The position numbers were made by a program, and so were the translations under genes. DNA of 64,000 nt from the NCBI RefSeq assembly GCF_021390425.1, contig NZ_JAJUWY010000009.1, forward strand, positions 1 through 64,000, written 5' to 3'. The stretch comes from Lysobacter sp. GX 14042 (lineage in GTDB: Bacteria; Pseudomonadota; Gammaproteobacteria; Xanthomonadales; Xanthomonadaceae). Of the stretch, positions 2,653 to 12,733 are shown piece by piece (position 1 is the first letter of the stretch; the number at the start of each line of letters is the position of its first letter). Under the pieces are notes generated by a model. The model searched no databases and was not told where the DNA came from. It worked only from the letters and a program-made list of their open reading frames with translations.

Positions 2653-2940
2653 TTATCCGCTTCGTGTCCGCGCACGGGCATACACCCCAGCCCCCTCCCG
2701 CTTGCCCACGGCAATCACCGTGACAACGAGCACCCCATCGTCCACCTGGTAGACGAGCCGGTAACCGACGGCACGGAGCTTGATCTTGTAGCAATCCCGC
2801 AGTCCGTGCAGCCGCGCGGACGGCACGTGCGGGTTCTCCAGACGCTCACCCAAGCGTGCCTTGAACTGCTCGCGGATCGGCGGCGCGAGCTTGCGCCATT
2901 CCTTCAGTGCCGACGTTACGAATTCCAGTTCATAGCTCAT
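2653..2940 (-). CDS. RelE/ParE-family mRNA interferase toxin
   Basis: A basic 95-residue protein of the RelE type. It starts MSYELEFVTSALKEWRKL, the usual RelE N-terminus, and carries the core LRDCYKIKLRAVGYRLVYQV and the strand VVTVIAVGKRE that closes the fold. RelE toxins cleave mRNA in the ribosomal A site; the conserved basic and aromatic positions (K, R and Y in the KIKLR/YRLVYQV segment) are present, so it looks active. Its ATG lies inside the last codons of the antitoxin gene (ATGAGCTATGA overlap of 11 nt), typical of translational coupling. An in-frame TTG just upstream is less likely as the start. Confidence 0.9.
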   Translation of the reverse strand: MSYELEFVTSALKEWRKLAPPIREQFKARLGERLENPHVPSARLHGLRDCYKIKLRAVGYRLVYQVDDGVLVVTVIAVGKREGAGVYARARTRSG

Positions 2941-3175
2941 CAAGCGTGACCTTTACCCGACGTTCCTTCGCACGGGCTCGGACAAGTTCAGCCAGCTCGA
3001 GGTCTTCCAGACGCTCCATGAGCCGTTCATAGGTCGCTGCGGGCACCAGGTATGCAGAAGGCCTGTTGTGTACCAGCACCGCAACGGAGGCCCCCTCCGC
3101 CGCGTCGATGATCGCGCTCGGGTTCCTCTTCAGTTCGGTGATGCTGACACTGGCGTCGGCAAGAATACGCTGCAT
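2930..3175 (-). CDS. RelB/Phd-type antitoxin
   Basis: An 81-residue antitoxin read just ahead of the RelE-type toxin. The N-terminal half (ASVSITELKRNPSAII, then VLVHNRPSAYLVPAATYERL) is the Phd/YefM DNA-binding fold; the acidic and basic C-terminal helix (LEDLELAELVRARAKERR) would wrap the toxin. Despite the RelE partner, the antitoxin is therefore YefM/Phd-like. I chose the ATG at 3175 because GAGAGG lies eight bases upstream; an in-frame GTG at 3184 is an alternative. Both starts fall within a perfect palindrome that is the likely operator, so the pair is expected to repress its own expression. Confidence 0.88.
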   Translation of the reverse strand: MQRILADASVSITELKRNPSAIIDAAEGASVAVLVHNRPSAYLVPAATYERLMERLEDLELAELVRARAKERRVKVTLDEL

Positions 3176-3204
3176 ATTTGGCACCTCTCAAGGTGCCAAA
3201 TATG
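3173..3204. promoter_or_regulatory. Perfect 14-bp inverted repeat over the antitoxin start (TA operator)
   Basis: Arms 3173-3186 (CATATTTGGCACCT) and 3191-3204 are exact reverse complements with a 4-base spacer. The left arm contains the antitoxin start codon and the Shine-Dalgarno sequence reaches into the spacer. Toxin-antitoxin pairs usually bind such palindromes to repress their promoter. Because it also covers the start site, it could instead, or additionally, fold in the mRNA and hide the start. Confidence 0.75.
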
Positions 3205-3930: not shown

Positions 3931-4076
3931 GGCTCGCGTGCTCCTGTTTCGGTACCGGTCCAGACTACCCCGCCGCGAGGCGCGGGCATGCCGCTGAATG
4001 CCGTTGCCGGGCGCCACCCTGGCAGGCGGGGCATGCCGCGGCAGGGTGTAAAATTGCCGGTTTTCCGCGGCGAACC

Positions 4077-4790
4077 ATGGCGAAGGCATCACAAAGGGAG
4101 GCGGTTCCGGCTCCGGCGTTCATACGCCTGCTTGCGCGCCTGGCCGACGTGGACCTGCGCGCGCCGGGCCACGCGCTGGTGGACCGGCTGGGCGAGTGGA
4201 TCGACTGGACCCGGGCCGTCGCCCTGTCCAGTGCGCTGGACGGCCGGCTGCCGGCGGCCCACCGCGCCCCGGAGGGTGACGGCGATGCGCAGCAGGAGTG
4301 CGCGCGCGTTCGCGCCGCGCTGGTGGCCGCCATCGGCGCCGACCCCGAAACCGCGGCCCCCAGGTGGCGGGGCAAGCAGCCCGGTCCGGACGGCTACGCG
4401 GTCTTCCGCGAGCGTTACCTGGACCTGCAGCGGATGATGCAGGCCGAGGTCGGGCGCCTGCGCGGCCAGCTGCGTGACCGGCTCGGCCAGGCCTCGGCGG
4501 AGCTGGCCCGGCTTGCCAAGGTGGATGCGGTCATGGATGCGACGCTGAGCCCGCGCGAACACGTGCTGCTGGCGACCGCCCCCGCCCTGCTGGGCCATCA
4601 CTTCGAACGCCTGCGCGCCGATGCCCTGGTTCCGCAGGCGCACCTGGAGTTCCCGCCAGACCCCGGGACGACCGGCACCGGCGCATGGCTGGATGTGTTC
4701 CGCCAGGACATGCGCAACGTGCTGCTCGCCGAACTCGACGTCCGCTTCCACCCCGTTGAAGGGCTGCTTGCAGCGCTTCGCACCGAATAG
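4077..4790 (+). CDS. DUF3348 protein, first gene of ZorAB-like motor operon
   Basis: A 237-residue, mainly helical protein that I assign to DUF3348. There is no signal peptide or membrane segment. The middle (LDLQRMMQAEVGRLRGQL and onward, about residues 118-160) is a likely coiled coil, and the C-terminal third ends in a helix-rich segment with WLDVFRQDMRNVLLAEL. It is the first of four co-directional genes, with only 10 bp before the next. Nothing in the sequence suggests an enzyme. As far as I recall, a DUF3348/DUF2894 pair flanking a ZorA/ZorB-like pair has been proposed as a third type of the Zorya anti-phage family; I cannot check that here. The TAAAAT about 25 bp upstream may be its -10 box. 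Confidence 0.75.
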   Translation: MAKASQREAVPAPAFIRLLARLADVDLRAPGHALVDRLGEWIDWTRAVALSSALDGRLPAAHRAPEGDGDAQQECARVRAALVAAIGADPETAAPRWRGKQPGPDGYAVFRERYLDLQRMMQAEVGRLRGQLRDRLGQASAELARLAKVDAVMDATLSPREHVLLATAPALLGHHFERLRADALVPQAHLEFPPDPGTTGTGAWLDVFRQDMRNVLLAELDVRFHPVEGLLAALRTE

Positions 4791-4800
4791 CCCGAACCCC

Positions 4801-6789
4801 ATGCTCAGAAACCTGCTTCACCTTCTTGTGTTCCTGGCCGGCCTGGCCGCCGTGTGCTGGATCGGCGCCGGTTATCTCGGCTCCAACCTGCCAGCAGCCA
4901 CCATCACCGCGGTGATCGGCGCCTGCTACGTCGCCGGCGCACTGGAGCTGCACCGCTACCGCCAGGCCACTGCCACGCTGGCCCGGGTGGTCGCCGAGGC
5001 GGACGCGGCCACGTCCGGGCTCGGTGACTGGCTCGCCCGGCTGCACCCAAGCCTGCGCAACGCGGTGCGCTTGCGGGTGGAAGGTGAGCGCGTCGCCCTG
5101 CCGGCGCCCGCGCTCACGCCGTACCTGGTCGGACTGCTGGTGCTGCTGGGCATGCTCGGCACCCTGCTGGGCATGATGGCCACCCTGCGCGGCACCGGCC
5201 TGGCACTGGAGAGCGCCAGCGACCTGGACGCGATCCGCGGTTCGCTGGGCGCCCCGGTCAGGGGCCTGGCGTTCGCCTTCGGCACTTCGATTGCCGGCGT
5301 GGCCAGTTCGGCCATGCTCGGCCTGCTGGCCGCCCTGTGCCGGCGCGAGCGGCTCCACGCCGTGCACCTGCTCGACGTGCAGATCGCCACCACCCTGCGC
5401 CCGCACTCGCAGGCCTGGCAGCGCGAGGAGGCATTCCGCCTGCTGCAGCAGCAGGCCGGGCTGATGCCCACGCTGGTCGAGCGCCTGGACGCCATGACGG
5501 CTGCACTGGAGCAGCAGAACCGGGTGGCCGCGGAACAGTTGTCCGCACGCCAGGACGACTTCCACGCCCGCACCGAGGCGGCCTACACGCGTTTGGCCAT
5601 GTCCGTCGAGCAGTCGCTGAAAACCGGCGTGGCCGAGAGCGCCCGCGCCGTCGGCACCGCGCTGCAACCGGTGATGGAGGCCACGATGGCCGGCCTCGCC
5701 CGCGAGACCGCGTCGATGCAGGCCGCCGTCACCGGCGCGGTGCAGCAGCAGCTCGACGGCCTGGCGGCCGGCATGGAAACCGCAAACACGACCGCGGCTG
5801 CCCACTGGGCGGGCGCCGTGGCGGAGCAGCAGCGCGCGAACGCCACGCTGGTGGAGGGCCTGCGTGAATCGCTGGCCCGGTTTACCGACAACTTTGAACA
5901 GCGCTCGACGGGGTGGCTGGAGTCCGTCTCGACCCGGATCGATGCGGCCACTGCCGCCACGGCGGACGCCTGGAGCAGCACACTGGCCCGCCAGGAGGCG
6001 GTCAACGAAGCACTTGCCGCGCGCAACGAGCAAGCGCTCGCCCACGCGGCGACCACGTTCCAGGAACGCGCCAGCGGCCTGGCCGGCGTGATGCAGCACT
6101 CGCATGCGGAGTTCCAGGAAGCCCTGGAGTCGCGCGACCAGCAGCGCCTCGAGCGCTGGACCGAAGCGTTCGGCGCGATGACGGCCCAGGCCCAGGCACA
6201 GGCCCGCGACACCATCGCCGAGATCTCCCGCCTCGTGGACGCCGCATCGGAAGCCCCCAGGGCCGCGGCCGAGGTGGTCGCCGAGCTGCGGCAGAAGCTG
6301 TCCGACAGCATGGTCCGCGACACCGCCCTGCTCGAGGAGCGCACCCGGTTGCTGGGCACGCTGGAAACGCTGCTCGACGCGGTCAATCATGCCTCTACCG
6401 AGCAGCGCACTGCCGTGGATGCCCTGGTCGGCACCTCGGCCGACCTGCTGGAGCGGGTCGGCACCCGCTTCACCGACCACGTCGAGGCCGAGACCGGCAG
6501 ACTCGGCACCGCCGCCGCGCAGGTCACCCACGGCGCGGCCGAAGTGGCGGGACTGGGCGAGGCCTTCAGCGCCGCGGTGCGGCAGTTCGGCGACTCGGCC
6601 ACGGCCCTGGGCGGGCAACTGCAGCAGATCGAGGCGGCGCTGGAAAAATCGCTGGTCCGCAGCGACGAGCAGCTGGCCTATTACGTTGCCCAGGCCCGCG
6701 AGGTCGTCGACCTCAGCACGCTGTCGCAGAAACAGATCATCGGCGAGTTGCAGCAGCTCGCCGGCTCGCGCAGCCCGGGCGGAGCCTGA
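4801..6789 (+). CDS. DUF802 protein: MotA/ExbB/ZorA-like motor subunit with long coiled-coil tail
   Basis: A 662-residue protein. Residues 5-45 hold two membrane helices; residues 106-127 (LVGLLVLLGMLGTLLGMM) and 150-180 (APVRGLAFAFGTSIAGVASS) hold two more, and this second pair matches the conserved core of the MotA/TolQ/ExbB proton channel. From about residue 200 to the end it is an Ala/Gln/Glu-rich helical tail without membrane segments, including the DUF802 repeat region near residues 475-545 (DTIAEISRLVDAASEAPRAA and following). Four membrane helices followed by a long cytoplasmic tail is the architecture of ZorA. The next gene encodes a MotB/ZorB-like partner. Function is inferred from architecture, not from a characterised homologue. 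Confidence 0.8.
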   Translation: MLRNLLHLLVFLAGLAAVCWIGAGYLGSNLPAATITAVIGACYVAGALELHRYRQATATLARVVAEADAATSGLGDWLARLHPSLRNAVRLRVEGERVALPAPALTPYLVGLLVLLGMLGTLLGMMATLRGTGLALESASDLDAIRGSLGAPVRGLAFAFGTSIAGVASSAMLGLLAALCRRERLHAVHLLDVQIATTLRPHSQAWQREEAFRLLQQQAGLMPTLVERLDAMTAALEQQNRVAAEQLSARQDDFHARTEAAYTRLAMSVEQSLKTGVAESARAVGTALQPVMEATMAGLARETASMQAAVTGAVQQQLDGLAAGMETANTTAAAHWAGAVAEQQRANATLVEGLRESLARFTDNFEQRSTGWLESVSTRIDAATAATADAWSSTLARQEAVNEALAARNEQALAHAATTFQERASGLAGVMQHSHAEFQEALESRDQQRLERWTEAFGAMTAQAQAQARDTIAEISRLVDAASEAPRAAAEVVAELRQKLSDSMVRDTALLEERTRLLGTLETLLDAVNHASTEQRTAVDALVGTSADLLERVGTRFTDHVEAETGRLGTAAAQVTHGAAEVAGLGEAFSAAVRQFGDSATALGGQLQQIEAALEKSLVRSDEQLAYYVAQAREVVDLSTLSQKQIIGELQQLAGSRSPGGA

Positions 6790-6794
6790 ACCGC

Positions 6795-7430
6795 ATGAGC
6801 GACGAGATCGAGTTCGAAGGCGAGTCCACCGCGACGACCTGGACCGCGTTCGGCGACCTGATGTCGGTGCTTCTGGGCGCGTTCGTGCTGATCCTGGCGG
6901 GCGTCATCGGCATGCAGCTGCAGCTCTCGGACCGGCTTGATGAGGCCGTCAGCGAGGCGCAGCGCCTGAGGACGCTGGAGCAGGCGCTCGCCGCGCCCCT
7001 GGCCGAGGGCCGGATCACCGTGATCGACGGCCGCATCGGCATCAGCGGCAGCGTGCTGTTCGCGCTCAACTCCGACCAGTTGCAGCCGGAAGGCCACGAG
7101 TTGCTGCAAAGCCTGGCGATGCCGCTGTCGGGCTATCTGCAGTCGCGCGAGGAGATCCTGATGGTGAGCGGCTTCACCGATGACCGGCCGGTACTGGACA
7201 GCAACCGCCGCTTTGCCGACAACCTGGAACTGTCCGCCGCCCGTGCACTTACCGTCACCCGCGCCCTGGTCGCCAACGGCGTGCCGGCCGGACAGGTGTT
7301 CGCCGCCGCCTTCGGTGACCAGCAACCGGTTGCCTCCAACGCCGACGAGCAAGGACGGGCGAAGAACCGGCGGGTGGAAATCGCGCCGGTTCCAAGGCCG
7401 GGGACAGGGAGCACGTCGGATGCGGGCTGA
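6795..7430 (+). CDS. MotB/OmpA-like peptidoglycan-binding motor partner (ZorB-like)
   Basis: A 211-residue protein with one N-terminal membrane helix (about residues 19-38) and a periplasmic OmpA/MotB domain (about 70-205). The helix begins TAFGDLMSVLLGAF; Asp21 sits where MotB and ZorB carry the proton-binding aspartate, so this should be a stator-type subunit paired with the upstream DUF802 protein. OmpA-domain features are GFTDDRP, NLELSAARA and a final NRRVEI, which bind peptidoglycan. It starts 5 bp after the DUF802 stop and overlaps the next gene by 11 bp, so the genes are probably translationally coupled. It is shorter than OmpA porins and has no beta-barrel. Confidence 0.85.
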   Translation: MSDEIEFEGESTATTWTAFGDLMSVLLGAFVLILAGVIGMQLQLSDRLDEAVSEAQRLRTLEQALAAPLAEGRITVIDGRIGISGSVLFALNSDQLQPEGHELLQSLAMPLSGYLQSREEILMVSGFTDDRPVLDSNRRFADNLELSAARALTVTRALVANGVPAGQVFAAAFGDQQPVASNADEQGRAKNRRVEIAPVPRPGTGSTSDAG

Positions 7431-7782
7431 CCGCGCCAGCCGCAAGCCGGGGCCGCTGCGGGCGTTGCTCGACCACATCGAGGCATCGGCGGGCGCGCTC
7501 GAGCGCCCCACGCTGGAGGAATTCCAGGAGCTCTGGGGTCGCATCCGCAACGACAGCCAGGTGCGGCAATCACTGGCGGCGGTCCCCGAGGGCGCCGGGC
7601 CGCTCCACTCCAGTACCCTGCTCCACCGCGCGATGGGCCTGATGCGCGACGCCTCGCCGGGCTACCTGGAACACTTCATCGCCTACGCCGATGCGCTGTC
7701 GTGGATGGAGCAACTGCAGGACGGGGACTGCGACGGGAGCGGCAATCCCGCGAAGACGCGCGCACGCAAGCGCGGCACGTAA
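7420..7782 (+). CDS. DUF2894 protein, last gene of motor operon
   Basis: A 120-residue soluble protein that I assign to DUF2894. It opens with a basic region (RASRKPGPLRALLDHIE), has a helical core (FQELWGRIRNDSQVRQSL; LHRAMGLMRDASPGYLEHF) and ends in a lysine/arginine-rich tail (KTRARKRGT). No enzyme motif is visible. The ATG lies within the end of the ZorB-like gene, an 11-bp overlap that suggests coupled translation and a shared function. It could bind the long cytoplasmic tail of the motor or nucleic acid through its basic ends; this is a guess from charge alone. Confidence 0.75.
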   Translation: MRADRASRKPGPLRALLDHIEASAGALERPTLEEFQELWGRIRNDSQVRQSLAAVPEGAGPLHSSTLLHRAMGLMRDASPGYLEHFIAYADALSWMEQLQDGDCDGSGNPAKTRARKRGT

Positions 7783-7855
7783 GTCGAGCCGGCCCATCGC
7801 GCGCCACGTGCCGCGGCAGGACTATCCTGCCCGGACCTTTCCCGTTCCGGCGCCA

Positions 7856-7975
7856 ATGAACCTGCCCGCCCCGCACTTCTACGACCGCGAAGACTTCGCC
7901 CGGAGCCGCCATGCCAGGGGAGACGACGGGCAGGCTGCGGTGCTGGAGATCGACCTGCGCCTGGCAGGGGGCTGA
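7856..7975 (+). CDS. Possible small protein, 39 residues, unrecognised
   Basis: A short open frame reading MNLPAPHFYDREDFARSR and ending in RLAGG, located between the DUF2894 gene and the YiiX-like gene, 15 bp before the latter. There is no clear Shine-Dalgarno sequence and I recognise no family. It could be a real micropeptide, the decayed end of a longer gene, or chance. It is listed because it fills most of a 207-bp gap. Confidence 0.2.
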   Translation: MNLPAPHFYDREDFARSRHARGDDGQAAVLEIDLRLAGG

Positions 7976-7989
7976 GGGAGCGGGGCGGC

Positions 7990-8748
7990 ATGTCCGTGCG
8001 GCACCGCCTCGGCCAGCGGCTCGCCCGCTACCTCGCCCGGCCACGCGCCGGACACAGCTCGCTGCCGGCCACCACGCCGGAGGACCTGGGCGCGGTCCTG
8101 CAGGTGGGCGACGTGCTGCTGGTGGAAGGCACCAGCCGGCTGTCGACGGTGATCAAGTACCTGACCCAGTCCACCTGGTCGCACGCGGCGCTGTATGTCG
8201 GCGACCGCCTCGGCGGCGCCGCGATGCTGGTGGAGGCCGACGTGGCCGAGGGCGTCCGGCGGGTGCCGTTGTCGCTGTACTCGGACCTGCACACGCGGAT
8301 CTGCCGACCGGTGGGGCTTGGACCGGCGGATGTGGATGCGCTTCTGGATTTCGTGCGCACCCGGCTGGGCAACGCCTACGACCTGCGCAACGTGTTCGAC
8401 CTGCTGCGCTACCTGGTACGGGTGCCGGTGCCGACCCCGATGAAGCGGCGGATGATCGCACTGGGCAGCGGCGACCCGACGCGGGCGATCTGCTCGACCC
8501 TGCTGGCGCAGGCGTTCGAATCGATCCGCTATCCGATCCTGCCGCAGGTCGAGTCGATCCCACCGGCACACCCCGGCGCGGCGCGGGTCCGCCGGGAGAT
8601 CCTGCACATCCGTAACTACTCGCTGTTCGTGCCGCGCGACTTCGACGTCTCGCCGTACTTCCGCATCGTCAAGCCGCGGCTGGACGAGGACTTCGATTAC
8701 CGCCGGCTGAGCTGGGGCGATACGGGACCGGCCGCGGGGGACGGGTGA
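7990..8748 (+). CDS. YiiX/YebB-like permuted NlpC/P60 cysteine hydrolase
   Basis: A 252-residue protein of the YiiX-like group, a circularly permuted NlpC/P60 papain-fold family. Motifs in order: VGDVLLVEG, STWSHAALYVGD with the likely catalytic histidine, MLVEADVAEGV, and then TRAICSTLLAQAF with the nucleophilic cysteine, which follows the histidine as expected for the permuted order. Members are thought to cleave amide or ester bonds of lipids or peptides. There is no clear signal peptide; the N-terminus is arginine-rich (RHRLGQRLARYLARPR). Convergent with the DUF1176 gene, whose end is 34 bp away. Confidence 0.8.
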   Translation: MSVRHRLGQRLARYLARPRAGHSSLPATTPEDLGAVLQVGDVLLVEGTSRLSTVIKYLTQSTWSHAALYVGDRLGGAAMLVEADVAEGVRRVPLSLYSDLHTRICRPVGLGPADVDALLDFVRTRLGNAYDLRNVFDLLRYLVRVPVPTPMKRRMIALGSGDPTRAICSTLLAQAFESIRYPILPQVESIPPAHPGAARVRREILHIRNYSLFVPRDFDVSPYFRIVKPRLDEDFDYRRLSWGDTGPAAGDG

Positions 8749-8782
8749 GCGGCCCGCCCTTTCGATTCCTTCTTCCGGTGGC

Positions 8783-9853
8783 TCAGCGGGTCACGTTCCG
8801 CACGAGCCGGGGCAGGTGCCACGCCCCGCCGGGAGCCACAAGCCGGCAAAATCCGCTGCTGCTGTCGGCGGTCTGCACGAACCGCTCGCCATCCCAGGTC
8901 CAGCTCGCGTGCCAGAAGCAATCGCCGAGGCCGCGGCCCTTCTGCATCGCCTGGATCTCCCCGCCCTCATGCCTGCTGGCCGATGTGGTCACCAACTCCG
9001 GATCGTAGGGCGCCTCATCGTTCACGACCCAGTAGCCGATGCCCTCGTTGTAGGCACCCGTCCAGCAACGGGTCGACACCAGCAGCTTCTCCGCGTCGAG
9101 CCGCATGGCCTCAAGGGGCGTGGACCGCTCCTCGTCATTGAGATCCCGGCACTCTTCGGGATCCGGAAGGCTTTTCACCACGGCGGAACGCAGACCCGGA
9201 AGATGGGCCAGGCGATCATCGGCAGGTTGTGCCGCGACAGGCGCCACGGCGCGCACGACGGGTGCGGCGACTGGTGGCGGCACGGCGTCCTCGCTGCGCG
9301 TACCGCGCCGTACCAGTGCACCGGGCGTGCCCAGTCGCCCCTGGAATTCATCCATTTTCAGCAATACCGCAGTCGCGCCCTGGTCGGAGAGCACCCAAGG
9401 GCTGTCGGTGCCCTCTCCGTGGAAGACGATCGTGCTGTCGCGCTTCAGGGCGTGGATCAGCGCCTTGAGCTGCCCGGAAGACAGCTCGCCGGTGCCCTCC
9501 ACACGGTTGAAGTCGACGCGCCCCAGATGCTGGTCATTGATCCGCAACTCCAGCGCGGCAGGCATCGCCGTTTCCTCGTACTGGCCCAGCATCACCCGGG
9601 CCTCGACCGGGGCGCCCGCGCCGGCGCGCCTTGTCAGCAACACCGAGACGGGAGAACCGGGGCCGGATTCCTTGCCGTAGCCCGCGGCACGACAGGTCCG
9701 CGTGTTGTCGCAGACCAGCAGCCAGTCGTGGTGCTGGAACTCCAGTCCTACCGCTTCGCCCGCCGTTGCCGTGGGCACCACGAGCAACAGCAGGCCGGCA
9801 GCCGCCAGGAGCGGGAGCCCGGATGCACGCCAGGGTCTTTCCAAATGCATCAT
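8783..9853 (-). CDS. DUF1176 secreted protein
   Basis: A 356-residue protein starting MMHLERPWRASG with a clear signal peptide (LPLLAAAGLLLLVVPTATAG). It belongs to the DUF1176 family of exported proteins of unknown role. Visible features are an N-terminal domain with a paired-cysteine strand (WLLVCDNTRTCRAAGY) and a C-terminal domain with further cysteines (STRCWTGAYNEGIGYW, GDCFWHASWTWDGERF), probably disulphide-bonded in the periplasm. It is preceded by GAGGGGA and lies 10 bp after a lipoprotein gene on the same strand, so the two are likely co-transcribed with the broken M15 gene upstream. Confidence 0.8.
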   Translation of the reverse strand: MMHLERPWRASGLPLLAAAGLLLLVVPTATAGEAVGLEFQHHDWLLVCDNTRTCRAAGYGKESGPGSPVSVLLTRRAGAGAPVEARVMLGQYEETAMPAALELRINDQHLGRVDFNRVEGTGELSSGQLKALIHALKRDSTIVFHGEGTDSPWVLSDQGATAVLLKMDEFQGRLGTPGALVRRGTRSEDAVPPPVAAPVVRAVAPVAAQPADDRLAHLPGLRSAVVKSLPDPEECRDLNDEERSTPLEAMRLDAEKLLVSTRCWTGAYNEGIGYWVVNDEAPYDPELVTTSASRHEGGEIQAMQKGRGLGDCFWHASWTWDGERFVQTADSSSGFCRLVAPGGAWHLPRLVRNVTR

Positions 9854-9863
9854 CGGCTTCCCC

Positions 9864-10409
9864 TCAGTCGGTGTCCGGGCAGTCGGCTTCGACGTCATAC
9901 CCGAGATAGTAGTAACCGCTCCAGAGGATCCCGCCCGCACCCGGAGCGCCCGAACGTACGCGAAAGCGGACCCCTTCGCCGGTAGCGCAGTGCTCGAAAA
10001 CATCGCGCCGGCCATCGCGATCGACATCCAATGCATCATCCGGCGCCGCAACCTGCTCCGGCACCAGCACCCCGATTGCCAGCCCATCGGAAGCGTCGGG
10101 CTCGATGAGGTAGAACGACAGGCCGTCTGCCACGTTCACTTCGCGTCGATCGTCGTCCAGCGCGGGACAGGCATCACCCGGACCGGCACGTCGACCGACC
10201 TTCGCGCGCACCGCCTGCTGCGGCCCATCCAGCATCACCACCACAGCTCCGGTACCGGGGGCGACATCGGCTTCGGCCAGCGCAATGCAAGGGCCGTGCA
10301 CCCAGCCGATCGGCGGCGGCCCACCGGCATCCCGCTTCACCACCGATGCGCAGGCCGACAACAGCAGGCAGGCCAGAACGGAAGCTCCCATGCGACAACG
10401 ATGGGTCAT
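9864..10409 (-). CDS. Lipoprotein, unrecognised family
   Basis: A 181-residue protein starting MTHRCRMGASV with a lipoprotein signal ending in the lipobox LLSAC (acylated Cys at about residue 20). The mature part contains two short acidic segments (PALDDDRREVN; DDALDVDRDGRRDVFEHC) that resemble calcium-binding or dockerin/FG-GAP-like loops, and a tyrosine-rich C-terminus (SGYYYLGYDVEADC). I do not recognise the family. It begins 4 bp after the M15 peptidase stop and ends 10 bp before the DUF1176 start, so the three form one transcription unit of envelope genes. Confidence 0.65.
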   Translation of the reverse strand: MTHRCRMGASVLACLLLSACASVVKRDAGGPPPIGWVHGPCIALAEADVAPGTGAVVVMLDGPQQAVRAKVGRRAGPGDACPALDDDRREVNVADGLSFYLIEPDASDGLAIGVLVPEQVAAPDDALDVDRDGRRDVFEHCATGEGVRFRVRSGAPGAGGILWSGYYYLGYDVEADCPDTD

Positions 10410-10413
10410 GCGC

Positions 10414-10985
10414 CTATCTCCCGTTGAAAGACCAGTGGGGTGCATCGGAGCGCAGCTTGCGCACGCCGTAGGATGCGCCGACATCGTGCAGACCGAGGTT
10501 CGAATTGACGTTTGGCGTCCAGGTTACGGTCACCGCCGATCCATCCTTGCGCGGCAGCTCGATCACCCCGCTCCAGCGGATCGTCATGTCGATCGCTCGC
10601 CCCGAAATGTGATTGCTGGTCAACGCCGGCGGATGGATGCTGCGTGGCGGCATGGCCAAGCCGAACCCCCGGACCATTTGCAGCGCGCCAGTCCTGCTCG
10701 CGGCCTCGTCGTGATGGTCCCAACGGATACCCACCCCTGGCATGGAGATGGCCTCAGCGGCCATGCACTTGCCGTTCGCAATTTTCCATGACCAATGGAA
10801 CAGGTACGCACGCTTGGGATTCCGACGCGTCGCGGAAACCTCGACGGTCGCTCCTGCATCCGCCAGTACGGCGAGGAAGGCCTCGACATCACGACGGAGC
10901 TTGCCTCAAGGTCTTCGATCCGTCGGCTGTTCCTGGCATGGGTGTTCGCCCACGCCACCCAGTGCGCGCCGCTTCTGGCGTCCAT
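10414..10985 (-). pseudogene. M15 (D-Ala-D-Ala carboxypeptidase-like) peptidase, frameshifted
   Basis: Reading from the ATG at 10985, which has a strong AAGGAGG seven bases upstream, the protein begins MDARSGAHWVAWANTHARN and loses frame within 10901-10907. In the next frame it continues KLRRDVEAFLAVLADAGATV, then RAYLFHWSWKIANG, and reaches the M15 zinc motif SNHISGRAID near 10590-10620 and a normal end at 10414. One base appears to be missing. Joined, the product would be about 190 residues, close to single-domain M15 peptidases that trim peptidoglycan stems. No signal peptide is seen. It is either a recent pseudogene or a sequencing error; the downstream frame lacks its own good start. Confidence 0.8.
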
Positions 10986-11068
10986 ATTCTCCTCCTTGAG
11001 TCGGGTTCATCCTTGGTCGGCCGAGCAATCCGTGCGGCTGATGGCAGCCTACTGCAACTTGGGTGCCG

Positions 11069-12733
<1,665 letters not shown>

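What the first reader, a model, noticed from the sequence alone, without database searches (positions are those of the whole stretch)
4077..7782. Four-gene ZorAB-like proton-driven motor operon (DUF3348-DUF802-MotB/OmpA-DUF2894)
Seen: four co-directional genes with 10-bp and 5-bp gaps and one 11-bp overlap. The second product has four membrane helices, with an ExbB/MotA-like pair (residues 106-180), and a very long helical tail. The third has a single helix starting TAFGDLMSV, with an aspartate at residue 21 where MotB/ZorB keep the proton-binding residue, plus an OmpA domain. Known: this two-protein architecture is that of ZorA/ZorB in the Zorya anti-phage systems. Inferred: the DUF3348 and DUF2894 proteins are the effector or adaptor parts. 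I recall that a similar set has been proposed as a third Zorya type, but cannot confirm it. A housekeeping envelope role is the main alternative, since the genes share the local base composition.
Basis: partly seen in the sequence, partly recalled or inferred. Interest (0 to 1): 0.85.

Follow-up and report, generated by a model that had tools for sequence, protein, structure and literature searches.

The report
Known Zorya type III defence operon
Four neighbouring genes in this Lysobacter-like bacterium form a complete copy of an already described anti-phage system (Zorya type III), an ion-driven membrane motor with a long internal rod plus two helper proteins, whose last step is still not understood.

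Summary
Window 4077-7782 holds DUF3348, ZorA (DUF802 tail), ZorB (Asp21 plus OmpA domain) and DUF2894 in one operon. PADLOC names all four as Zorya type III proteins (E 1e-37 to 0). The type was published in 2021, with phage protection shown for the Stenotrophomonas nitritireducens copy (PMC8565338). That locus is L157 here; its ZorB is 77% identical. So this is a new member of a known kind.

(2) Present in 34 of 34 species of a Xanthomonas genus group but 6 of 10 of the window's genus; 1 of 148 between-genus pairs share a flanking gene, against 129 for purA. (3) Part of the ZorA tail has an 11-residue pattern in 90 of 92 copies; this copy lacks 33 tail residues. (4) Helper models are all-helical, without a significant structural match. 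(5) DUF2894 here lacks its N-terminal domain. Function of this copy is untested.

The parts
4077..4790 (+). DUF3348 protein, 237 aa (ZorF in Payne 2021 text; ZorG3 in PADLOC-DB 2.0.0)
   Evidence: PF11828 1.2e-79; PADLOC ZorG3 9.5e-86; all-helical model, pLDDT 80
4801..6789 (+). ZorA type III, 662 aa: four membrane helices, MotA/ExbB-like core, long DUF802 tail lacking 33 residues relative to Lysobacter concretionis (L057)
   Evidence: PADLOC ZorA3 E=0; PF05650 twice; membrane stretches; gap
6795..7430 (+). ZorB type III, 211 aa: one membrane helix, Asp21, OmpA-like peptidoglycan-binding domain 88-192
   Evidence: PADLOC ZorB3 2.2e-103; PF00691 7.5e-18; Asp21 in 92 of 92 distinct copies, window included
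7420..7782 (+). DUF2894 protein, 120 aa (ZorG in Payne 2021 text; ZorF3 in PADLOC-DB 2.0.0), without the usual N-terminal domain
   Evidence: PF11445 1.5e-28, profile positions 107-184 of 185 only; PADLOC ZorF3 1e-37; lengths of relatives

Best explanation
It is a complete Zorya type III anti-phage operon. Shown here by sequence: family membership of all four proteins, operon order, conserved residues of the presumed ion path, the long helical tail and the OmpA domain. Inferred from solved Zorya I/II motors: five ZorA and two ZorB make an inner-membrane motor; the ZorB OmpA domain grips peptidoglycan; phage entry triggers ion flow past ZorB Asp21 and a ZorA ring (Thr121, Thr162, Ser163), most likely protons; this turns or rearranges ZorA and its long cytoplasmic rod. 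Inferred with less support: DUF3348 and DUF2894 are soluble, non-enzymatic helical proteins that act with the rod in place of ZorC/ZorD/ZorE, coupling its motion to a block of the incoming phage genome or to a partner nuclease encoded elsewhere. I put membership at about 0.97, motor action at about 0.85, and the non-enzymatic adaptor role at about 0.5.
For: PADLOC profile matches for all four. Same four genes, order and strand in 78 of the 80 named loci kept of 368 found and in 20 of 20 unnamed loci, six of which repeat a named one in ZorB. The cloned and phage-tested S. nitritireducens locus (PMC8565338) is L157: DUF3348 55%, ZorA 47%, ZorB 77%, DUF2894 57% identical over the aligned part. 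Asp21 of ZorB and Thr121, Thr162, Ser163, Ser170, Asp141 of ZorA are in 92 of 92 distinct copies. In types I/II the ZorB Asp packs on a ZorA Ser/Thr ring, and the Asp, peptidoglycan binding and the ZorA tail are needed for defence (PMC11890865). Part of the tail has a 3.65-3.69-residue periodicity in 90 of 92. No Foldseek match at E<=0.001 for the DUF3348 or DUF2894 model; no PADLOC hit, so no ZorC/D/E, in seven neighbours.
Against: Phage protection by this copy is untested. This copy lacks 33 tail residues and the DUF2894 N-terminal domain, and the 11-residue signal of its tail is weaker and split (3.56 and 3.67) compared with four relatives (partial output). NCBIfam ZorA model NF033915 is hit at 30.8 bits, below its cut-off of 100. 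The His of ZorB I/II needed for peptidoglycan binding (PMC11890865) appears to be Phe127 here, Phe in 91 of 92 (the correspondence is my reading, not an alignment). In Burkholderia cenocepacia K56-2 the first one or two genes of a predicted Zorya III changed expression during infection, but none of the predicted defence systems altered fitness on knockdown with the one phage used (PMC12584637, passages). Helical models do not exclude enzymatic activity.
Confidence: 0.82

Rival explanations
1. A housekeeping or envelope-maintenance motor of the Tol/Exb kind, in which anti-phage effects are a by-product.
For: DUF3348 is in 34 of 34 species of one Xanthomonas genus group, one copy each; fixed surroundings within Xanthomonas and within the window's genus; genes share local base composition; no PADLOC hit in seven neighbours.
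Against: Absent from 169 of 395 family genomes and 4 of 10 genus members; location differs between genera, 1 of 148 pairs share a flank gene against 129 (purA) and 61 (hutU); a relative protects E. coli from phages (PMC8565338).
Confidence: 0.1
2. A decaying or inactive copy: the tail deletion and the loss of the DUF2894 N-terminal domain have broken the system in this species.
For: Tail 460 against 493 residues between anchors in the five other carriers of the genus; DUF2894 120 aa against 227-234 aa in those five; the two genomes nearest by frnE, G003 and G120, lack the operon; tail periodicity weaker than in relatives.
Against: All four frames open; the tail deletion is in frame; conserved ion-path residues kept; pN/pS against L. 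concretionis 0.52, 0.39, 0.29 and 0.47, though most of that divergence may predate the deletions; 5 of the other 91 distinct copies also have a short DUF2894 N-terminal part.
Confidence: 0.1
3. A motor system of the same build aimed mainly at plasmids or conjugation rather than phages.
For: Nothing direct; 27 of 72,556 plasmid records match DUF3348, all on replicons of 0.37-3.5 Mb.
Against: Phage protection shown for L157 (PMC8565338); plasmid defence by it is not mentioned in the passages seen.
Confidence: 0.05

Closest known systems
Zorya type III of Stenotrophomonas nitritireducens DSM 12575 (L157, NZ_LDJG01000021.1)
   Same: Same four families, order and strand; ZorB 77% identical; the record named as the source of the cloned, protective system (PMC8565338)
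   Different: ZorA 798 aa against 662; DUF2894 220 aa against 120, with the N-terminal domain present
Zorya types I and II
   Same: ZorA/ZorB motor with membrane Asp (D24 or D21), OmpA-like domain and long ZorA rod (PMC11890865); weaker profile hits to ZorA1, ZorA2, ZorB1, ZorB2
   Different: No PADLOC hit, hence no ZorC, ZorD or ZorE, in the seven neighbours scanned; DUF3348 and DUF2894 instead; Phe127 apparently in place of a His important in types I/II
Flagellar MotAB / ExbBD / TolQR
   Same: Four-helix membrane protein plus one-helix Asp partner with OmpA-like domain
   Different: Of the 25 of 40 NCBIfam families shown for ZorB only PRK09040, named hypothetical protein, passes its cut-off (339 against 194 bits), no flagellar model does; very long DUF802 tail

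Membership tests
Zorya type III | ZorA with MotA/ExbB/TolQ core of the type III profile | tested here: met
   PADLOC ZorA3 E=0, 1051.9 bits; NCBIfam NF033915 only 30.8 bits, below its cut-off of 100
Zorya type III | ZorB with one membrane helix, conserved Asp and OmpA domain | tested here: met
   ZorB3 2.2e-103, OmpA 7.5e-18, membrane stretch 22-40 and Asp21 in 92 of 92 distinct copies
Zorya type III | DUF3348 protein next to zorAB | tested here: met
   PF11828 1.2e-79, 10 bases upstream of zorA
Zorya type III | DUF2894 protein next to zorAB | tested here: met
   PF11445 1.5e-28, overlapping zorB by 11 bases; N-terminal domain missing
Zorya type III | Anti-phage activity | not testable with these tools
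   In print for the L157 system (PMC8565338); not for this copy
Zorya type III | ZorA5:ZorB2 complex | not tested
   Complex not modelled; 5:2 solved for types I and II (PMC11890865)
Zorya type I or II | ZorC and ZorD, or ZorE, beside zorAB | tested here: not met
   No PADLOC hit in seven neighbouring proteins
Flagellar MotAB | Match over the curated cut-off of a flagellar MotA/MotB model | tested here: not met
   Flagellar models for ZorB all below cut-off among the 25 of 40 families shown; ZorA hits no MotA model at E<=0.01

The most novel reading that the evidence does not exclude
Zorya type III is a nuclease-free, purely mechanical member of the Zorya group: two non-enzymatic helical proteins work with an 11-residue-repeat rod whose length is fixed in steps, the DUF2894 N-terminal domain is dispensable, and in some genera the system has become a stably inherited core immunity.
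Probability: 0.22. Interest if true: 0.65.

Novelty: new member of a known kind. Interest (0 to 1): 0.33.

Why it matters
Type I has a predicted helicase (ZorD) and type II an HNH nickase (ZorE) (PMC11890865); type III shows nothing of the kind here by profile, by model comparison or by eye in the invariant residues. A compact natural copy (662-aa ZorA, 120-aa DUF2894) points to parts that may be dispensable and makes the open question of the type III effector directly testable. Retention in every sampled species of one genus and loss in another also bears on whether a defence system can become part of a stable genome.

Tried and rejected
Recent insertion at this site: in sister genome G003 the stretches matching frnE and hutU lie about 0.2 kb apart where the window has about 7.1 kb with the operon, and I first read this as a gain. 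I dropped that because hutU lies 1.9-5.1 kb from the operon in all six carriers of the genus, so loss in G003 and G120 is likelier; gain and loss are not formally separated.

Full stability within genera: rejected as a general statement. By the same gene-picking method 2 of 5 within-genus Zorya pairs share a flank gene, against 5 of 5 for purA and 5 of 5 for hutU; the two are L053 with the window and L053 with L057, while the pairs in g25 and g13 share none, and Stenotrophomonas loci show at least three different surroundings.

Defence island: no PADLOC hit in seven neighbours. In G120 the slot holds transport and other ordinary genes, with one PADLOC hit to an amino-acid transporter profile that I take as unspecific.

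Tail length steps as multiples of 11: 3 of 16 distinct non-modal lengths, p=0.17, not significant. ZorA length against DUF2894 length: rho 0.09, n=92, no relation.

Solved structures by sequence: no meaningful ZorA hit, best E 0.6; the 60 ZorB hits listed are OmpA-like-domain chains. Foldseek gave no E<=0.001 for either model; the DUF2894 model is of L157 because the window copy lacks the N-terminal domain. No phage record matched DUF3348 (0 of 50,697).

Method limits: flank comparisons use a crude GC-frame ORF picker that missed hutU itself in the window, so shared-flank counts may be low; the controls used the same method. The tree is the quick method on 78 of 92 rows after dropping near-copies. 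Named loci are the best 80 of 368 found.
Full report
What is there. Window 4077-7782 holds four + strand genes: DUF3348 (237 aa), ZorA with DUF802 tail (662 aa), ZorB with Asp21 and OmpA domain (211 aa) and DUF2894 (120 aa), spaced +10, +5 and -11 bases. Hydropathy gives four membrane stretches in ZorA and one in ZorB, none in the other two.

What it is. PADLOC matches all four to Zorya type III: DUF3348 9.5e-86, ZorA E=0, DUF2894 1e-37, ZorB 2.2e-103. Pfam agrees; NCBIfam's ZorA model is hit below its cut-off (30.8 of 100 bits). Zorya type III was described in 2021 from 6,401 loci, and the S. nitritireducens DSM 12575 system reduced plaquing of at least one tested phage in E. coli (PMC8565338, passages seen). 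That record, NZ_LDJG01000021.1, was returned as L157; its ZorB is 77% identical to the window's. [quoted passage not shown] Naming caution: the 2021 text calls DUF3348 ZorF and DUF2894 ZorG, while PADLOC-DB 2.0.0 labels them the other way round.

A fixed four-gene unit. All four genes are found in the same order and strand in 20 of 20 unnamed loci and 78 of 80 named loci, the two misses being contig ends. The named loci are the best 80 of 368 found, and six of the unnamed repeat a named one in ZorB. In one named locus, L162, the ZorA frame is interrupted. ZorB of this type (over 330 bits) occurs in exactly the 6 of 10 genus members that have DUF3348.

Distribution. DUF3348 is in 226 of 395 family genomes and 17 of 46 genera, 91 of 249 in the order and 8 of 323 in the class, four of these outside the order. 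Plasmid records: 27 of 72,556, on large replicons. Phage records: 0 of 50,697.

Place and history. In the window's genus hutU lies 1.9-5.1 kb from the operon in six of six carriers. In the 15 loci sampled from other genera no hutU lies in the 4.6-8.5 kb of flank held on each side. Between genera 1 of 148 pairs share a flank gene, against 129 of 148 for purA and 61 of 148 for hutU in the same genomes. Within genera it is 2 of 5 pairs, against 5 of 5 for each control, so the place also differs within g25 and g13, while most Xanthomonas loci share recurrent surroundings. The gene tree groups rows by genus better than shuffles (27 changes against a mean of 51.5), although starred branches force three changes each for Xanthomonas, Stenotrophomonas and Dyella. 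It puts the window with Lysobacter/Novilysobacter rows (95, starred) and five Burkholderiaceae inside a starred group with Dyella, Rhodanobacter and Rudaea, which suggests transfer (quick method, midpoint root). So the operon is kept for long in some genera, changes place or host in others, and can be lost.

Local history. In sister genome G003 the stretches matching frnE and hutU lie about 0.2 kb apart where the window has about 7.1 kb with the operon; G120 has other genes there. These two are nearest by frnE, 90% and 83% identical. Since hutU neighbours the operon in all six carriers, loss in these relatives is likelier than recent gain here; this is inference.

Ion path and anchor. ZorB Asp21, and ZorA Thr121, Thr162, Ser163, Ser170 and Asp141, are kept in 92 of 92 distinct copies, window included. 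In Zorya I and II the matching Asp packs on a Ser/Thr ring of ZorA, and the Asp, peptidoglycan binding and the tail are needed for defence (PMC11890865). The solved type II Asp is also residue 21, with surroundings like proton motors. The position that appears to match the peptidoglycan-binding His of types I/II is Phe127 here, Phe in 91 of 92.

The rod. Residues 231-463 of ZorA show their strongest periodicity (grid 3.3-4.0) at 3.65-3.69 residues, an 11-residue (hendecad) pattern, in 90 of 92 copies: mean power 13.7 at 3.67, against 0.2 at 3.5 and at most 1.1 when shuffled. In the window the signal is weaker, and over the whole tail it splits into 3.56 and 3.67; beyond this stretch the signal was weak in the four copies examined before a script error, the window among them (partial). 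Tail length between anchors is exactly 493 in 36 of 92, although mean identity in the repeat part of these is 52% and the lowest 34%. For comparison, ZorB shows 3 distinct lengths, the tail 17 and DUF3348 29. The window tail is 460; against L. concretionis it has one gap of 33 residues, three times 11, lying just beyond the stretch measured for the pattern. Over all copies multiples of 11 are not enriched (3 of 16 lengths, p=0.17), so the fit of 33 may be chance. A search for ZorA with hendecad found no paper in the library, but the 2025 structure paper by Hu and colleagues is not held, so the pattern may be in print.

The two helper proteins. AlphaFold gives all-helical models: DUF3348 pLDDT 80, pTM 0.75; DUF2894 of L157 pLDDT 75, pTM 0.41, helices in two separated parts. 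No PDB match reaches E<=0.001, so no nuclease or helicase fold is detected, though such models match poorly in general. The window DUF2894 matches only profile positions 107-184 of 185; 6 of 92 copies, the window included, have this short N-terminal part.

Is this copy working? The frames are open, the deletion is in frame, conserved residues are kept, and pN/pS against L. concretionis is 0.52 (DUF3348), 0.39 (ZorA), 0.29 (ZorB) and 0.47 (DUF2894). That suggests constraint but does not prove present function. In B. cenocepacia K56-2 the first one or two genes of a predicted Zorya III changed expression on infection, but none of the predicted defence systems altered fitness on knockdown with the one phage used (PMC12584637, passages).

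Verdict. A genuine, apparently intact Zorya type III operon: known in kind, with an unusually short rod and a shortened DUF2894. The open question is what DUF3348 and DUF2894 do.

Noticed in passing
window 2653-3184 (-): A Phd/YefM antitoxin and ParE toxin pair (PF02604, PF05016) between the RhlE-like gene and frnE; in sister G003 the matching stretches on either side lie about 54 bases apart against about 950 here, so the pair is absent there.
   Followed up: partly
window 7990-8748 (+): YaeF/YiiX-like permuted amidase (PF05708) directly downstream of the operon, found in 1 of 10 genus genomes.
   Followed up: partly
window 3934-11074 and L083/L084: The frnE-hutU interval is a variable slot: Zorya III, the amidase and DUF1176 in the window, about 0.2 kb in G003, transport and other genes in G120.
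   Followed up: partly
L162: In Pseudoxanthomonas sp. NC8 the ZorA reading frame is interrupted (107-aa ORF): a broken copy or a sequencing error; left as found.
   Followed up: no
L133, L137, L142, L143, L165: Other relatives (four Luteibacter, one Stenotrophomonas) whose DUF2894 also has a short N-terminal part.
   Followed up: no
L150: A contig titled Bacillus subtilis carries this operon and shares flank families with Stenotrophomonas loci L120/L141, so the record is probably mislabelled or contaminated.
   Followed up: no
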